Assembly: GCF_020852195.1 (NCBI RefSeq)
Contig: NZ_JADZBI010000107.1
Coordinates: 1 to 36,997, forward strand
Source of the DNA: Hyphomicrobium sp.
GTDB lineage: Bacteria > Pseudomonadota > Alphaproteobacteria > Rhizobiales > Hyphomicrobiaceae
Reading direction: 5' to 3'
DNA length: 36,997 bases
Shown: piece by piece, positions 29,868-36,997 of the stretch
How positions within the stretch are numbered: the stretch's first letter is position 1
Layout of the letters: each line of letters starts with the position of its first letter
Made by a program: the position numbers and the translations under genes
The notes under the pieces: model-generated
Databases searched by the model: none
Told to the model about the DNA's origin: nothing
Seen by the model: the letters and a program-made list of their open reading frames with translations, nothing else

Positions 29868-32800
29868 ATGTGTCTCTCATTGCGTCGGTTCGCGCTGATT
29901 TTGGCGATCGCGTCGCTTCTGACTGCGTTGCCCACTTTGGGTCCGTTCGCAGGCGGTCTTGACACAGTCGACGGCCTTACGCGACGTGTTCTCGAACTCT
30001 ACAAGAGCAACGAGTTCGATGAGGCTGTTCCGCTCGCAGAGCGAGCCGTCGCGCTGGCCGAAAGTAAATTTGGGCCCGAGCATTTGGAAGTCGCGACGGC
30101 ACTGAGCAACGTGGTGCTGGTCTACAAGGCGAAGGGCCGATTTGCTGATGCAGAAGGTCCAGCGCAGAGGGCTTTGGCCATAACTGAGAAGCTGCTAGGG
30201 CCCAATTTTCCCGACGTGGCCCGCCAACTGACCAACCTCGCATCGGTGTATACCGCACTTGGACGATTTGATGAGGCAGAGCAGCTTTACGTTCGCGCGC
30301 TCGCGATAGTTCAGAAGTCGTTTGGAAAGCGCTCCCCGCTTTTTGGGGCAATCTCCGGAAGTTTGGATGACTTGCGCCGCGGGCGCAAAGATCCCGATAC
30401 TCTGTCCGTCCAGTCCTCGGCTCATCGCGATCCGAACGATCCCGATCTAGCGATGAGGGATTCTGCTTCGGCAAGAATTCGGGGAAGCCAAAAACCCTCG
30501 GATGAACTCGGCGTCCTCAACGCGCAAGCTGAGAAATTATATGAGGAAGGAAGATATTTCGAGGCTGTTCCGGTTATGGAGCAAGTGTTAGCGCTGACCG
30601 AAACGTTTTACGACGCCAACCACACCGCTCTTGCCGCCGCGCTCAGTCACTTGGCAACGCTTTACCTCAATCAAGGTCGTCACGCTGATGCCGAACAGCT
30701 CTTTAAGCGCTCGCTCGCGATCACCCCTGAGGATGATGCCACCGTCAACAACTTGGCGGAGCTCTACCGTGTCGAGGGTCGCTACGCCGAGGCTGAGAAG
30801 CTCTTTGTGGGCTTGCTTGGAAAAAACCCTGAAGAGACTTTCGCGCTCAATAACCTGGCGCGCCTCTACATCACTCAGGGTCGCTACGCTGATGCCGAGG
30901 CGCTCTGCAATCGACGGCTTGCCAAAGAGCCGGATGACCCCGCCGCGCTTAACAATTTGGCCACGCTGTACCTCAACCAAGGTCGCTACGCCGATGCCGA
31001 GCCGTTCTACAGAAATGCGCTTGCTACCAACGAGAGGCTTGGCCCAGACCATCCCTCTGTCGCCTTCGCGCTAAACAGCTTGGGTACTTTGTACCGGGCA
31101 GAAGGCCGCTATGCCGACGCCGAGCCGCTCATAAAACGCGCTCTGGCGATCCATGAGAAAGGGCTTGGCGCCGACCATCCTCACACGGCCCATATCTTGA
31201 ACAACCTCGCGGAGTTGTATCGAGAGACTGGCCGTTACAGCGACGCGGCGCCCCTCTATCAACGCGCGCTTGCGATTTTTGAGCGCGCATACGGTGCCGA
31301 CCATCCCGATGTCGCTAGCGCGCTCAACAATCTGGCCATGCTCTATCGCGAGGAAGGTCTCTACACCGACGCCGAACCGCTCCACAAGCGATCGCTTGCA
31401 ATCCGCGAGAAGACCTTCGGTTCCGAGCACCCCGACGTCGCAACCGCGCTCAGTAACTTGGCCGACCTGTATCGCGAATCCGGCAGGCCCGCCGACGCCG
31501 AGTCGCTCTACAAGCGTGCGATCTCGATCTTCGAGAAGGCATACGGCCCCGACCATCCCGGCATCGCAACCGCTCTGAGTGACCTTGGCGCGATGTACTT
31601 CGCTCGTCAAAATTGGAAACAGGCGGTCGACTACTGGCGCCGCAGCACCAGCATAACGACCCGCCGCGCCGACGGCGGTACGAGCTCCTTTGGTCTGAGC
31701 CCTACTGGCAAGAAGAGGAGCGAGCCAGAACGGCTACAGAAGCGATTTTGGGGGCTCATCAAGTCGGCCTATCACCTTTACAAATCCAACTCTGGGCCGA
31801 AACTAGCAGCCGAAATATTTGAAACCACACAATGGGCACAAACTTCCGAGGCTGCCCAATCGCTTGCACAAATGGCGGCCCGCGCGGCGGGCGGAAACCC
31901 CTCGCTGGCGACCATCGTCCGCGAACGTCAGGATCTCGTGGAAGACTGGCAACGGAGAGACGCGGCAAGCGGCGCCGTTGCTACCGAGGCGCTGGAGAAC
32001 CGCAGCAAAGATGCTGCGAATGCGGCATGGCTCAATGTCATTGAAGTTCGCCTCAAAGCCATCGATGAGCGGCTGCAAAAGGAATTCCCGGATTATGCGG
32101 CTATGATGAGCCCGCGTCCGCTCACCCTCCGGCAGACTCAGACCCTGCTTGGGATCAACGAGGCGCTTGTCCTGTTTGTCGACATGCCGGAATTCAAACC
32201 CTCTGCCGAGGAGACCTTCATCTGGGTCGTTACCAGAACCGATGCACGCTGGGTCCGTTCAGATCTCGGCACCAAGGCACTTACGGAGCGCGTTGCCCGA
32301 CTCCGCTGTGGGCTGGATCGTGACGGCGAATGGACTTGGTCAAAGGAGAAGGACCGCTTCCTCGGTAAGAAAGCGGCGTGCACCGCGCTCCGGCCCAATG
32401 GCCTCAGGCACAGCGAATTGCCGCCCTTCGATCTCGCAACCGCACACGAGCTTTGGACGGCGCTCCTTGGCCAAAGTGCCGACTTGATCAAAGGCAAGCA
32501 TCTGCTCTTGGTTCCCTCGGGACCGCTGACCAGCTTGCCGTTTCAAGTACTGGTGACCGCGCCTCCGGTCGTCGACGACTTATCGACCGCGCCCTGGCTG
32601 ATCCGCGATCATGCGCTGACCGTGCTGCCGTCGGTAGCGAGCCTTGCCGCGCTTCGCCGCAACACCAATGTCTCGACGGCGCCCGAGCCATTCGTCGGCT
32701 TCGGCAATCCGGTGCTCACAAGGGACTGCGGCGAAGCCTACGTCCCCGACACCTGCCCCGGGGACAGGACTAACGTCGCCGCCACTGACGCCAGCGCGAC

Positions 32801-33500
32801 GGCTCGGTCGTCCGGGTCGGTCAACGAAGTCGCGAGCTATTTTCGCGGCGGTCGCGCCGACGTGGCGACTCTCAAGGCGAGTTTATGCCCGCTTCCCGAT
32901 ACTGCCCACGAGCTGTTGTGCGTCGCGAGAAGCCTCGGCGCGCCGGACACCAGCATCGTGCTCGGCAGGGACATGAACGAGCGCACGGTGAAGAGCATGC
33001 AACTCGACCGCTACCGCGTCATTCACTTTGCGACCCACGGGCTGCTGGCCGGGCAGACAGAGGAGCTTGCCAAGATCCACGCCGAACCGGCATTGGTGTT
33101 GTCCCCTCCCGAGATCGCGAGCGAAGAGGACGACGGGCTGCTTACGGCCTCAGAGGTCGCGGGGCTGAAGCTGGATGCTGACTGGGTGGTGATGAGTGCG
33201 TGCAACACCGCGAGCGCCGCTGCGCCCGGCGCCGAAGCGTTGTCGGGGCTCGCCAAGGCGTTTTTCTATGCGGGAGCCCGCGCGCTGCTCGTGTCGCACT
33301 GGCCGGTCAACTCATATGCGGCGACCATGCTGACCACCCGGGCATTCGCCGAGATGAAGCGCGACTCGTCTGTTGGTCGCTCGGACGCACTACGCATCTC
33401 CATGCTGGCGCTTCTAGGCGACACCGACCGCCTCTGGGCCGTGCATCCCTCTGTCTGGGCGCCTTTCGTAGTCGTCGGCGAGGGCGGCGCTGGCCAGTAA
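29868..33500 (+). CDS. exported TPR-CHAT (caspase-like) protein
   Basis: 1210 residues. A signal peptide covers about 1-30 ('RFALILAIASLLTALPTLG'). Three TPR units follow, then a linker (about 170-215), then about nine more TPR units of the 42-residue kinesin-light-chain kind ('YADAEPLIKRALAIHEKGLG', 'HPDVASALNNLAMLYREEG') to about residue 590. A helical stretch leads to the C-terminal CHAT domain (about 870-1205), a clan CD peptidase fold. Its catalytic pair is present: His1057 in 'VIHFATHG' and Cys1112 in 'WVVMSACNT', followed by 'GLAKAFFYAGARALLVSHWPVN'. CHAT proteases include separase relatives and the bacterial TPR-CHAT effectors of type III-E CRISPR systems, but this one is exported and has no CRISPR partner here. 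The likely partner is the small exported protein upstream. The target is unknown. Confidence 0.9.
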   Translation: MCLSLRRFALILAIASLLTALPTLGPFAGGLDTVDGLTRRVLELYKSNEFDEAVPLAERAVALAESKFGPEHLEVATALSNVVLVYKAKGRFADAEGPAQRALAITEKLLGPNFPDVARQLTNLASVYTALGRFDEAEQLYVRALAIVQKSFGKRSPLFGAISGSLDDLRRGRKDPDTLSVQSSAHRDPNDPDLAMRDSASARIRGSQKPSDELGVLNAQAEKLYEEGRYFEAVPVMEQVLALTETFYDANHTALAAALSHLATLYLNQGRHADAEQLFKRSLAITPEDDATVNNLAELYRVEGRYAEAEKLFVGLLGKNPEETFALNNLARLYITQGRYADAEALCNRRLAKEPDDPAALNNLATLYLNQGRYADAEPFYRNALATNERLGPDHPSVAFALNSLGTLYRAEGRYADAEPLIKRALAIHEKGLGADHPHTAHILNNLAELYRETGRYSDAAPLYQRALAIFERAYGADHPDVASALNNLAMLYREEGLYTDAEPLHKRSLAIREKTFGSEHPDVATALSNLADLYRESGRPADAESLYKRAISIFEKAYGPDHPGIATALSDLGAMYFARQNWKQAVDYWRRSTSITTRRADGGTSSFGLSPTGKKRSEPERLQKRFWGLIKSAYHLYKSNSGPKLAAEIFETTQWAQTSEAAQSLAQMAARAAGGNPSLATIVRERQDLVEDWQRRDAASGAVATEALENRSKDAANAAWLNVIEVRLKAIDERLQKEFPDYAAMMSPRPLTLRQTQTLLGINEALVLFVDMPEFKPSAEETFIWVVTRTDARWVRSDLGTKALTERVARLRCGLDRDGEWTWSKEKDRFLGKKAACTALRPNGLRHSELPPFDLATAHELWTALLGQSADLIKGKHLLLVPSGPLTSLPFQVLVTAPPVVDDLSTAPWLIRDHALTVLPSVASLAALRRNTNVSTAPEPFVGFGNPVLTRDCGEAYVPDTCPGDRTNVAATDASATARSSGSVNEVASYFRGGRADVATLKASLCPLPDTAHELLCVARSLGAPDTSIVLGRDMNERTVKSMQLDRYRVIHFATHGLLAGQTEELAKIHAEPALVLSPPEIASEEDDGLLTASEVAGLKLDADWVVMSACNTASAAAPGAEALSGLAKAFFYAGARALLVSHWPVNSYAATMLTTRAFAEMKRDSSVGRSDALRISMLALLGDTDRLWAVHPSVWAPFVVVGEGGAGQ

Positions 33501-33904: not shown

Positions 33905-34378
33905 CTATTGGCCAGGCGCCTTGCCGAGATGATTGAGATAGGCGACCAGCTCCCAGATCTCCTCTTCGCTGAATACATCGCCCCAAGGTGGCATTGGGGT
34001 CGCGCCCTTTCCGCCGTCACGAATGGTTTCAAAGGCGTGATGCGGCTCCACGGGGCGACCGATGAACAACGCCGGCTCGTGACCGTGACAGAAGTCGGCA
34101 CAGGTCGAATGAAAGCGCTCTTTGCCCGCCTCGATACGGGCCGCGTCGTTGAGATTGATCGGAATGTCGCTGCTCTCCTCCTGCTCTGCCAGATTATTGG
34201 ATTTCTCTTCAGGGGGACTTTTGCCTGTCGTGGTGTCGTCGCTGGTCGTCCCCTCCGTTTCCGAGGATGGTTGGGAGAAAGGATCTTCGATGGGCGGAGG
34301 GAAACCTCCTGCCATGACGGTTACAGCCATAAAAAGAAAGCAGAGCGCGGATGCAATCTTGATGGTCGTGGCGTTCAT
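33905..34378 (-). CDS. exported c-type cytochrome with a CX3CH heme motif
   Basis: 157 residues from the ATG at 34376-34378, where a signal peptide begins ('IKIASALCFLFMAVTVMAGG'); the track start 55 codons earlier reads through hairpins. Residues about 25-80 are a Ser/Thr/Glu-rich linker. The cytochrome domain follows. Its heme site is Cys93-Ala-Asp-Phe-Cys97-His98, with three residues between the cysteines instead of two, and Met129 in 'ATPMPPWGDVF' is the likely sixth ligand. A final helix 'EEIWELVAYLNHLG' is standard for class I cytochromes. It lies 100 bases after the PQQ dehydrogenase and is the obvious electron acceptor for it. Confidence 0.88.
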   Translation of the reverse strand: MNATTIKIASALCFLFMAVTVMAGGFPPPIEDPFSQPSSETEGTTSDDTTTGKSPPEEKSNNLAEQEESSDIPINLNDAARIEAGKERFHSTCADFCHGHEPALFIGRPVEPHHAFETIRDGGKGATPMPPWGDVFSEEEIWELVAYLNHLGKAPGQ

Positions 34379-34423: not shown

Positions 34424-34435
34424 TTGACGAAAGAC

Positions 34436-34459
34436 GGCGGATGGCAAATGCCATCCGCC
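34436..34459 (-). terminator. strong hairpin after the PQQ dehydrogenase gene
   Basis: Perfect 11-base arms GGCGGATGGCA and TGCCATCCGCC with a two-base loop, 19 bases beyond the dehydrogenase stop. On the transcribed strand it is followed by GTCTTTCG, only a short T run, so it may end some transcripts and let the rest continue into the cytochrome, or protect the upstream message. Confidence 0.5.
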
Positions 34460-34478
34460 GCGCTTGTTGTTGTCGGTG

Positions 34479-36443
34479 TCAGTCGACCTGTACGGCGATG
34501 AGCTCTGCGGGCACTCCTGCGCCGCCAGTGGGCACGACGACATACTGCTTGCCGTCGGCCTTGTAGGTCATCAGAGCGCCGAATGCTGCTCCGGGCAGCT
34601 TGAGCTCGCTGACCAGCTCTCCCGACTTCGCATCATGAGCGTAGAGCATGGGCTCGGGCTCATCCTTTGTCGCTTGCGCTACGATGGCGGTGCCGCGGTT
34701 AGACAACCCAGTGACGCTGTACGTGCCATCCGGCGCCAGGAACAAGATGTTCTCGGTCAGCACGAGGTGGCTCATGCGCGGCACGCCCAAGCGATCGAGG
34801 TTGAGATGCTTGATCTCCGGGTTGTCGACCGGGCCGCGTCCTGCCGGAATGCGCCAGAGGTGCTCGCCAGTGTTCATGTCGATCGCAGTGACCGTCGAGA
34901 ACGGCGGCTTGAACAGCGGCAGTCCCTTGGGGCCGCCGACGCCCGCCCAGGTTCCCGTGTAGTCGTAAGCCGATCCGATCTCCTTCTTCAGCTTGGTTGC
35001 GAACGGCAGCATGTACGAGTGCACGTAGAGCACGTTCGTTTTCGGGTTGTGCGGAGCGCCGACCCAGCTTGCGCCACCGAGAAGACCTGGAACGAGCAGC
35101 GTGCCCGCCTTCTCGGTTGTCGGAGGCGTGTAGAGCGGACCGTAGTGATAACGATTGAGGATCTTCTTTGCCTCCTCCCGCAGCTCCGGCGTGAAGTCGA
35201 TGAGATCATCCTCGGTCGCACCCTGCTGGATGTAGGGTAGCGGCTTGCTCGGGAACGGCTGCGTCGGCGAGGATTGCTCTCCCGGCACGGTCGACTGCGG
35301 GACAGGCTTTTCCTCGATGGGCCAGATCGGCTCGCCGGTGAGCCGGTCGAAGGCGAATACAAAGCCCTGCTTTGTCACCTGCACAGCGGCTTTGATGTCC
35401 TTGCCGTCGACCTTGAGGTTCATCAGATTCGGTGCCGTGGGCAGATCGTAGTCCCACAAGCCATGATGGGCGATCTGATAGTACCAGGCGATCTTTCCGG
35501 TTTTGACGTCGAGAGCCACGAGCGACTCGCCGAACAGACCGTTGCCTTTGCGATGACCGCCGAAGAAGTCGTTGGCCGGCGTGGAAAGCGGCAGATAGAC
35601 TATCCCCGCCTCCTCGTCGCAACCGGGGCGCGCCCACATGTTCATGCTGCCGGCCGTTTTCCAGGAGTCTCCCTCCCAGGTCTCGTTACCAGGCTCGCCT
35701 TCCTGCGGAGGAGCGTGGAAGACCCATTTTTCCTCTCCAGTCTTTACGTCGAACCCGCGGACGTCGCCGGGCGCATGCGATTGCAGCGGCGGTCGCCCGA
35801 TCGCAAATGAATCGAGAATGAGGACACTAGGGACAACCACGCCACCGCAAACGATTGCCGGCGAGGCGACCATCATATGCTCACGCAACACTGGCCTTCT
35901 GAGGCCCTTCGTGAGGTCAATGCGGCTCTTGTCGCCCCAGCTTTCGATGGGCTTTCCGGTCTTGGCATCCAATGCGATCAGGTAGGCATTGCCGGTGCCG
36001 ACAATAATTCGCTTGTCGTCGCCATCTTCCCAATACGTCAGACCGCGGCTGAGGAAGCCGAGGTTCGGCGGGCTGCCATCGTCATAAGTGCGCGGATCAT
36101 AGGTCCACAATGTTTTGCCCGTCGCACCGTCGATCGCAGACACAAAATTCATCGGCGAGGACGAGTAGAGGATGCCATCGATAGCAAGCGGCGTGCCTTC
36201 GTTGACCCACGTGCGCAGGTCCGGGTTGCTTGCGGCTAGTTCATTGTCGGGCATCGGCCAGCGCCATGCGACCTTCATCCCCTTCACGCTATCCTTGGTC
36301 ACAGTCGGCGCCGGACTGTACTTCGACGCTGTCTTGTCGCCGTTGTATTCCCGCCAGTTGCCTTGCGGATCTGCGTATGCCGCAGCTCCCAATGCGGGGA
36401 TAACCAATGCGCCCAACAGCGCAGGTCGCAGCCTTCGTGTCAT
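34479..36443 (-). CDS. periplasmic PQQ-dependent dehydrogenase (membrane-glucose-dehydrogenase-like)
   Basis: 654 residues; GGAGG lies eight bases before the ATG. A signal peptide ends near 'AAAYA-DP'. The mature protein begins 'GNWREYNGDKTASKYSPA' and contains beta-propeller repeats ending in tryptophan motifs ('DGATGKTLWTYDPRT', 'DVKTGKIAWYYQIAHHGLWDYDLPTAPNL', 'DRLTGEPIWPIEEKPVPQS'). This layout matches the quinoprotein domain of membrane glucose dehydrogenase and quinate dehydrogenase, but the five N-terminal membrane helices of those enzymes are absent, so it should be soluble in the periplasm. It lacks the adjacent-cysteine ring of methanol dehydrogenases as far as I can see. Electrons probably pass to the cytochrome encoded next. 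Substrate unknown. No PQQ synthesis genes are in the window. Confidence 0.9.
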   Translation of the reverse strand: MTRRLRPALLGALVIPALGAAAYADPQGNWREYNGDKTASKYSPAPTVTKDSVKGMKVAWRWPMPDNELAASNPDLRTWVNEGTPLAIDGILYSSSPMNFVSAIDGATGKTLWTYDPRTYDDGSPPNLGFLSRGLTYWEDGDDKRIIVGTGNAYLIALDAKTGKPIESWGDKSRIDLTKGLRRPVLREHMMVASPAIVCGGVVVPSVLILDSFAIGRPPLQSHAPGDVRGFDVKTGEEKWVFHAPPQEGEPGNETWEGDSWKTAGSMNMWARPGCDEEAGIVYLPLSTPANDFFGGHRKGNGLFGESLVALDVKTGKIAWYYQIAHHGLWDYDLPTAPNLMNLKVDGKDIKAAVQVTKQGFVFAFDRLTGEPIWPIEEKPVPQSTVPGEQSSPTQPFPSKPLPYIQQGATEDDLIDFTPELREEAKKILNRYHYGPLYTPPTTEKAGTLLVPGLLGGASWVGAPHNPKTNVLYVHSYMLPFATKLKKEIGSAYDYTGTWAGVGGPKGLPLFKPPFSTVTAIDMNTGEHLWRIPAGRGPVDNPEIKHLNLDRLGVPRMSHLVLTENILFLAPDGTYSVTGLSNRGTAIVAQATKDEPEPMLYAHDAKSGELVSELKLPGAAFGALMTYKADGKQYVVVPTGGAGVPAELIAVQVD

Positions 36444-36997
36444 CGCCTTTTCCTCCAGATTTCTTATCTTCGTCTTTCGTGCCGGACGAGCCGGCCTCGA
36501 TGTCGTCGTTCTGGAGAAGCGCTATGGACGCGCGCACTCAGTCAATCGCCAGAGTCGCCCGCTCAGGGCTCCACTGACGACCGATGACCAAGCTTCCAAC
36601 GTGCTTTGGAAGGCTCCCCAGATGCCGATAAAAAGGGGAGGCTGCAAACCGTATGCCATGGTTTGGAAGGCGTGCAGTCGCGAGATGAATCGGCGGAAAA
36701 CCAACGGCTCAGCTTGAGCAAAGGCGAGGTCTACGCACCGTTACATCGTTACGCGCACTGAAGGTGCGCTGAATGCACCCCGGCGCCGAGCAACATTTGT
36801 AGCCTGCGAGGCTACATTTGACCTCAAGCGCCGCGCATCGCTCGCCGCGCTCTACCCTTCCAATTATTCCCGATTTTCATGGCATTAGCTCCCAACGTTT
36901 GTGGAGTTTTGGCATGGCATGCGGGTTGCTTTTCCCTATTGCGCTTCAACTTTGGCAGGGGAGCAAGACGACAGATCCGTGGCTGCCGCCCCCAGAC
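36444..36997. other. right-end intergenic region
   Basis: About 550 bases upstream of the PQQ dehydrogenase with no supported gene. Near 36478-36540 the plus strand reads 'RAGRAGLDVVVLEKRYGRAH', resembling the second strand of a flavoprotein nucleotide-binding fold; it may be a gene scrap or chance. An inverted repeat lies at 36798-36816. The last 150 bases are AT-richer and may belong to a promoter of a gene beyond the edge. Confidence 0.4.
36798..36816. promoter_or_regulatory. perfect inverted repeat TGTAGCCT-GCG-AGGCTACA
   Basis: Eight-base perfect arms around GCG, about 355 bases upstream of the PQQ dehydrogenase start. It could be an operator for that gene or for one to the right. No T run of terminator type follows on either strand. 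Confidence 0.45.

What the first reader, a model, noticed from the sequence alone, without database searches (positions are those of the whole stretch)
33905..34378. CX3CH heme motif in the cytochrome partner of a PQQ dehydrogenase
Cys93 and Cys97 are separated by three residues, not two, and His98 follows. The DNA is clear, and the axial Met129 and final helix are normal, so this is not a broken gene. CX3CH is rare and may need special maturation or tune the heme potential to the quinoprotein.
Basis: seen in the sequence. Interest (0 to 1): 0.6.

Follow-up and report, generated by a model that had tools for sequence, protein, structure and literature searches.

The report
CX3CH cytochrome family serving PQQ dehydrogenases
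A small bacterial electron-carrier protein holds its heme with a signature one residue longer than the textbook one; this is not a mutation but the fixed hallmark of a widespread, apparently undescribed family encoded right behind PQQ alcohol/sugar-type dehydrogenases.

Summary
In detail: window 33908-34378 (- strand) encodes a 157-aa periplasmic-type monoheme cytochrome with C93-A-D-F-C97-H98 and M129, 100 bp behind a PQQ dehydrogenase (34482-36443). It is not a one-strain mutation. A scan of 84,980 species genomes found 68 relatives, all CX3CH, in Alpha-, Beta- and Gammaproteobacteria; in all 65 with enough flank a PQQ dehydrogenase lies directly upstream on the same strand. The cytochromes form one clade, but their partner enzymes are two far-apart PQQ-dehydrogenase lineages (mGDH-like and alcohol-DH-like). 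The predicted fold resembles cytochrome cL/XoxG, the known PQQ-enzyme acceptors. No dedicated maturation is indicated: the genome holds one ordinary Ccm set and no second heme lyase. CX3CH is not obligatory for the partner: a Skermanella enzyme of the second lineage (about 64% identical) sits beside a CX2CH cytochrome. Most likely it is a normal Ccm-matured class I cytochrome that accepts electrons from the PQQ enzyme, with an inherited one-residue insert beside the heme. Whether the insert tunes potential or docking is untested. Neighbouring AcoR-type regulators, acetoin-dehydrogenase-type genes and a perfect sigma-54 promoter suggest small-alcohol (2,3-butanediol-type) oxidation. New variant of a known kind.

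The parts
33905..34378 (-). Monoheme c-type cytochrome gene with CX3CH motif, 157 aa, stop included
   Evidence: PF13442 49.2 bits
34085..34102 (-). Codons of the heme attachment motif C93-A-D-F-C97-H98 (CX3CH)
   Evidence: Read from DNA; invariant C, C, H in 24 relatives, 68 of 68 CX3CH
33992..33994 (-). Codon of Met129, predicted sixth heme ligand in MPPWG
   Evidence: Invariant in alignment A2; role inferred from class I cytochromes
34310..34378 (-). Probable Sec signal peptide (residues 1-23)
   Evidence: Sequence reading: n-region Lys, hydrophobic stretch, ...TVMA|GG; no signal predictor was run
34163..34309 (-). Acidic Ser/Thr/Glu-rich linker (about residues 24-72), predicted disordered
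   Evidence: 12 D/E, 14 S/T and 2 K in 48 residues; pLDDT about 50-63 there
34479..36443 (-). PQQ-dependent dehydrogenase, 654 aa, mGDH-related type without the vicinal Cys-Cys pair
   Evidence: PF01011 582 bits; groups with mGDH-like enzymes; no CC motif in relatives
34435..34460 (.). Perfect 11-bp inverted repeat in the 100-bp gap between dehydrogenase and cytochrome genes
   Evidence: function not tested
36643..36658 (-). Perfect sigma-54 promoter match TGGCATACGGTTTGCA about 200 bp upstream of the dehydrogenase start
   Evidence: 2 exact matches to TGGCAYRN4TTGCW in the window against 0.06 expected

Best explanation
The protein is a periplasmic monoheme class I cytochrome c that takes electrons from the PQQ dehydrogenase encoded just upstream and passes them to the respiratory chain. 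Heme is attached through Cys93 and Cys97, with His98 and Met129 as axial ligands. It is a member of a conserved CX3CH family whose one-residue insert in the heme loop (C-[A]-[A/G/D]-[Y/F]-C-H) arose once, is fixed by descent and purifying selection, and is handled by the ordinary Ccm System I. Shown: motif, conservation, operon pairing, predicted fold, a single Ccm set. Inferred: covalent double attachment, electron transfer from the partner, absence of special maturation. Open: what, if anything, the extra residue changes in potential or docking. The operon probably serves oxidation of a small secondary alcohol or diol (2,3-butanediol/acetoin type) under sigma-54/AcoR-type control; this step is the weakest.
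For: 68 of 68 family members CX3CH; PQQ dehydrogenase directly upstream on the same strand in 65 of 65 loci with enough flank (three others are cut at contig ends). C, C, H and M invariant. Family rows (33) are compatible with one clade when motif columns are left out (AU p 0.60). AF2 heme domain block means 84-97 pLDDT; best PDB folds are cytochrome cL 7c90, c552 9vr0, c6 1cyi, XoxG 6onq, Hyphomicrobium cytochrome cL 2d0w. One System I set: CcmF, CcmE, CcmH, CcmC, CcmG. AcoR-like regulator or acetoin-dehydrogenase-like E1/E2 genes in 48 of 73 family loci against 4 of 54 other Hyphomicrobium PQQ-DH loci. Sigma-54 site upstream. PQQ alcohol dehydrogenases PedE/PedH oxidise (2S,3S)-2,3-butanediol to acetoin in Pseudomonas putida (PMC8427195). 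System I recognises little beyond the motif (PMC3601427).
Against: No protein was made: heme attachment, thioether number and potential are untested. PMC3601427 reports that altered cysteine spacing can give aberrant attachment by Ccm. The AcoR comparison mixes taxa and was not matched for relatedness. The window contig ends 554 bp upstream of the operon, so a regulator of its own is not seen.
Confidence: 0.8

Rival explanations
1. The extra residue is a functional adaptation: it reshapes the exposed heme edge, places an aromatic residue next to Cys97, and tunes potential or docking for disulfide-less PQQ dehydrogenases.
For: The residue before the second Cys is Y/F/W in 67 of 68 members (M in one). 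None of the 65 partner enzymes shows the vicinal Cys-Cys at the usual place, whereas 40 of 64 PQQ-DH frames in Hyphomicrobium-group loci do. Expanded motifs recur in other PQQ-DH-adjacent cytochromes: CGAYCH and CX4CH CSSSFCH.
Against: A class II enzyme in Skermanella sits beside CVYCH, a CX2CH cytochrome. More distant disulfide-less relatives pair with CGFCH. The same clade serves two very different enzymes. Some expanded-motif partners do have Cys-Cys (L113, L124).
Confidence: 0.3
2. The CX3CH motif needs a dedicated maturation factor.
For: Some unusual motifs have dedicated lyases (NrfEFG for CXXCK in PMC3601427; CX15CH in MccA from general knowledge).
Against: Only CcmC and CcmF are found in the own genome with PF01578; no lyase-like gene was recognised among the recurrent neighbours that were examined. 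From memory, not held here: E. coli Ccm matures CXnCH with n = 3 and 4 correctly in a model cytochrome (Allen et al. 2009).
Confidence: 0.06
3. Single-strain mutation, sequencing error or decayed gene.
For: None beyond the oddity of the motif.
Against: 68 relatives keep it; C, C, H, M invariant.
Confidence: 0.01

Closest known systems
Cytochrome cL (MxaG) and XoxG, acceptors of methanol dehydrogenases
   Same: Small periplasmic class I cytochrome encoded with a PQQ dehydrogenase; among the top PDB fold matches (7c90, 6onq, 2d0w)
   Different: CX3CH motif; no match to the NCBIfam MoxG model for the window protein; different partner enzymes
Cytochrome c-550 PedF/ExaB (TIGR04494)
   Same: Acceptor of a PQQ alcohol dehydrogenase; C-terminal part matches weakly, 21 bits
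   Different: Cut-off is 122 bits; the true TIGR04494 members whose loci were read here all have CARCH, CX2CH
Pfam Cytochrome_CBB3 (PF13442)
   Same: Score above cut-off, 49.2 against 27 bits
   Different: One-residue insertion between the heme cysteines
c-type cytochromes with unusual motifs (CX4CH in cytochrome c3, CX15CH in MccA, CXXCK in NrfA)
   Same: Covalent-heme motif departs from CXXCH
   Different: Largely from general knowledge; those are multiheme proteins of other pathways. CX3/CX4CH motifs are counted in multiheme surveys (PMC10734462), but no paper on this family was found

Membership tests
Class I c-type cytochrome (PF13442) | Profile score above curated cut-off | tested here: met
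   49.2 bits against 27
Class I c-type cytochrome (PF13442) | Canonical CXXCH motif | tested here: not met
   CADFCH in DNA; whole family CX3CH. Filed as a variant for this reason
Class I c-type cytochrome (PF13442) | Met ligand before the C-terminal helix and class I fold | tested here: met
   M129 invariant; helices 79-90, 93-98, 112-121, 138-153; fold matches
Class I c-type cytochrome (PF13442) | Heme covalently attached | not testable with these tools
   Needs purified protein
Cytochrome c-550 PedF (TIGR04494) | Score above 122 bits | tested here: not met
   21.4 bits
Cytochrome cL (MoxG, TIGR03872) | Family model match | tested here: not met
   Not listed for the window protein; one class II diheme relative 32 bits against 147.8
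Periplasmic electron acceptor of a PQQ dehydrogenase | Conserved gene pairing with a PQQ dehydrogenase | tested here: met
   65 of 65 loci with enough flank
Periplasmic electron acceptor of a PQQ dehydrogenase | Measured electron transfer from the enzyme | not testable with these tools
   Needs kinetics
Membrane glucose dehydrogenase (TIGR03074), for the partner enzyme | Score above 832.65 bits and N-terminal membrane segments | tested here: not met
   364.6 bits; match begins at model position 151. Related, not a member
PQQ methanol/ethanol dehydrogenase (TIGR03075), for the partner enzyme | Score above 480 bits | tested here: not met
   208.1 bits

The most novel reading that the evidence does not exclude
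Expanded heme motifs (CX3CH here, CX4CH and CGAYCH in others) are a recurrent, selected design of cytochromes that serve particular PQQ dehydrogenases, with the extra residue shifting heme potential or the docking edge, still using the ordinary Ccm machinery.
Probability: 0.3. Interest if true: 0.65.

Novelty: new variant of a known kind. Interest (0 to 1): 0.5.

Why it matters
Heme-counting scripts that look for CXXCH alone miss this family, so respiratory cytochromes of many Zoogloea, Azoarcus, Aromatoleum, Methyloversatilis, Azohydromonas and Hyphomicrobium genomes are undercounted. The family is a natural test of how Ccm tolerates motif spacing in a simple soluble monoheme protein, and the Skermanella CX2CH cytochrome beside a close enzyme gives a matched natural control. 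It also defines a cytochrome module used by two unrelated PQQ-enzyme lineages.

Tried and rejected
Single mutation or pseudogene: rejected, orthologues keep the motif. General rule that PQQ-DH partners are CX3CH: rejected, all other partners seen in Hyphomicrobium-group genomes are CX2CH. Fused dehydrogenase-cytochrome proteins with CX3CH: apparent 700-aa frames in L068, L079, L081 were stop-free frames overlapping the enzyme, not fusions. One origin of all CX3CH including the CGAYCH group: the tree prefers separate places but does not reject one clade (AU p 0.27). Lanthanide link from the WDxD motif: seen in 43 of 46 class II partners but also in mGDH-like enzymes, so not pressed. Enzyme-anchored phylum samples gave only five foreign hits at 45-49% identity: the class II relatives pair with CGFCH, and no cytochrome was seen beside the two class I relatives within 1.5 kb. 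Literature: no paper found with CX3CH/CXXXCH and PQQ; only open-licence papers are held.

Full report
Observation. The window gene at 33905-34378 on the - strand reads ...STCADFCHGH... with codons TGT GCC GAC TTC TGT CAC at 34085-34102. The frame is open, has a probable signal peptide, an acidic linker (about residues 24-72) and one heme domain above the PF13442 cut-off. Upstream on the same strand, with a 100-bp gap, lies a PQQ dehydrogenase (34482-36443; PF01011 582 bits).

Is it one strain's oddity? No. A protein search of 100 related genomes, which does not depend on motif spacing, found strong matches (E below 1e-20) only with CX3CH: two further copies in the own genome (contigs C185 and C261) and copies in several other genomes of the genus and family; the next matches drop to E of 1e-6 or worse and are CX2CH. 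A scan of the GTDB species genomes with the nine-member alignment returned 76 loci; 68 belong to the family and all 68 are CX3CH, and the 8 others are distant CX2CH cytochromes. One of the two scan patterns contained the CX3C spacing, so this count leans towards CX3CH; the searches are the spacing-free check. Hosts named in the titles include Zoogloea, Thauera, Azoarcus, Aromatoleum, Parazoarcus, Denitromonas, Methyloversatilis, Methylibium, Ideonella, Azohydromonas, Derxia, Sphaerotilus, Ralstonia, Neptuniibacter, Rhodoblastus, Bradyrhizobium and Hyphomicrobium.

Residues. Across the 68 motifs the first X is A in 66, the second A, G, D or S, the third Y 57, F 9, W 1, M 1. In a 24-member alignment G85, C93, C97, H98, G99, F105, I119, G122, M129, P130, W142 and Y147 are invariant. 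Both heme cysteines are therefore under selection, which speaks for two thioether bonds.

Partner enzymes. In 65 of 65 loci with enough sequence the gene directly upstream on the same strand is a PQQ dehydrogenase; in L085 its frame looks interrupted. The three other loci (L042, L043, L091) begin at a contig end. In the own genome the contigs C185 and C261 also begin with a PQQ-DH C-terminus before the cytochrome. There are two sub-families. Class I cytochromes (window type) sit beside enzymes 56-74% identical to the window enzyme; class II cytochromes carry about five extra residues after the motif and sit beside enzymes only about 25% identical to it. In an enzyme tree the class I partners group with mGDH-like enzymes and the class II partners lie among the alcohol dehydrogenases, each a clade at 100. 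In cytochrome trees made without the motif columns, classes I and II fall together, and class I is one clade at 100/98 placed among the class II rows (branches between them weakly supported). So one cytochrome lineage with CX3CH was recruited to two enzyme lineages. None of the partner enzymes shows the Cys-Cys pair at the usual place before the [S/N]RG motif; three 'CC' flags there come from elsewhere in stop-to-stop frames.

A natural control. Plasmids of two Skermanella species carry a related cytochrome. In S. mucosa (the one read here) its motif is CVYCH, that is CX2CH, and it lies behind a PQQ enzyme 62-66% identical to class II partners. A class II enzyme can thus live with a CX2CH cytochrome. 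At about 45% identity, class II-like enzymes of one further genus of the same order (code g59) pair with CGFCH. CX3CH therefore follows descent of the cytochrome and is not dictated by the enzyme family.

How unusual is it? Among 37 heme-motif frames found by a cytochrome profile near PQQ dehydrogenases of Hyphomicrobium-group genomes, 5 are CX3CH and all belong to this family; the rest are CX2CH. Two other expanded motifs turned up beside PQQ dehydrogenases: CGAYCH in L113 and L124 (L127 alike, with a PQQ-DH end in the same locus), and CX4CH (CSSSFCH) in L128 and L131. The first group lies elsewhere in the cytochrome tree, though one clade is not rejected (AU p 0.27); the partner of the second is sister to class II partners at 94.

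Fold and maturation. The AF2 model is confident over the heme domain (block means 84-97) and poor over the linker. Best PDB folds are cytochrome cL of Methylophaga, c552 of Thioalkalivibrio, c6, XoxG and cytochrome cL of Hyphomicrobium; TM-scores are low against the full chain because half of it is linker and signal, and only two matches pass E 0.001. The own genome has CcmF, CcmE and CcmH together, CcmC and CcmG together, and no third member of the CcmC/CcmF family. System I needs little beyond the motif (PMC3601427), though the same review notes that altered spacing can misdirect attachment. From memory (Allen et al. 2009, Biochem J; not held here), E. coli Ccm attached heme correctly to CX3CH and CX4CH variants of cytochrome b562. 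A dedicated lyase is thus unlikely.

What the operon does. Within the fetched flanks, 48 of 73 family loci hold an AcoR-like sigma-54 activator or acetoin-dehydrogenase-type E1/E2 genes, against 4 of 54 Hyphomicrobium-group PQQ-DH loci without the family (Fisher p 8e-12, taxa not matched, so the p value is only a guide; one of the 4 lies next to a family locus). The NCBIfam models name the E1/E2 genes pyruvate-dehydrogenase type below their cut-offs except one subfamily hit; 'acetoin dehydrogenase' is my reading from the company of the AcoR-like regulator. In the own genome an AcoR-like regulator follows the C261 copy (L175). Upstream of the window operon is one of only two perfect TGGCAYRN4TTGCW sites in the window (36643-36658, -; 0.06 expected), with a divergent second site at 36915-36930 near the contig end. 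PQQ enzymes feeding acetoin catabolism are known in Pseudomonas putida (PMC8427195). I infer a small-alcohol or diol dehydrogenase module; the substrate is a guess (about 40%).

Origin of the window copy. In both trees the window proteins group with Beta-/Gammaproteobacterial ones (Neptuniibacter, Methylibium, Aquariibacter) and apart from the other Hyphomicrobium copies (support moderate), which suggests lateral transfer of the pair.

Verdict. A real, conserved and apparently undescribed CX3CH cytochrome family, ordinary in fold and probably in maturation. The effect of the insert is an open, easily tested question.

Noticed in passing
L128:1543 and L131:1543 (+): CX4CH motif (CSSSFCH) in a cytochrome directly downstream of a PQQ dehydrogenase that lacks the Cys-Cys pair; its enzyme is sister to the class II partners.
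   Followed up: partly
L113, L124, L127: A second CX3CH group, CGAYCH, in short cytochromes ending ...C[EK][QK]; in L113 and L124 behind PQQ dehydrogenases that keep the Cys-Cys pair; the L124 protein looks like a lipoprotein (LLAGC).
   Followed up: partly
window 36643-36658 (-) and 36915-36930 (+): Two divergent perfect sigma-54 promoter matches at the contig end; the gene served by the second lies beyond the contig.
   Followed up: partly
window 34435-34460: Perfect 11-bp inverted repeat between the dehydrogenase and cytochrome genes; could adjust relative expression.
   Followed up: no
L082 4325-5047 (+), also L047, L061: Class II members with two cytochrome domains: CX3CH twice in L082, CVSCH plus CAGYCH in others.
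   Followed up: no
L221 and L222: PQQ dehydrogenase, CX2CH cytochrome and a cytochrome c oxidase gene set in a row on Mesorhizobium and Methylocystis plasmids: a complete alcohol-to-oxygen electron line.
   Followed up: no
own genome contigs C185, C261, C27: Two nearly identical class I pairs at contig starts, probably one repeat split by assembly.
   Followed up: no
window 29868-33500 (+): 1210-aa TPR-repeat protein with a C-terminal CHAT caspase-like protease domain.
   Followed up: no
own genome: Very rich in PQQ dehydrogenases: 38 PF01011 matches, roughly 18 genes.
   Followed up: no
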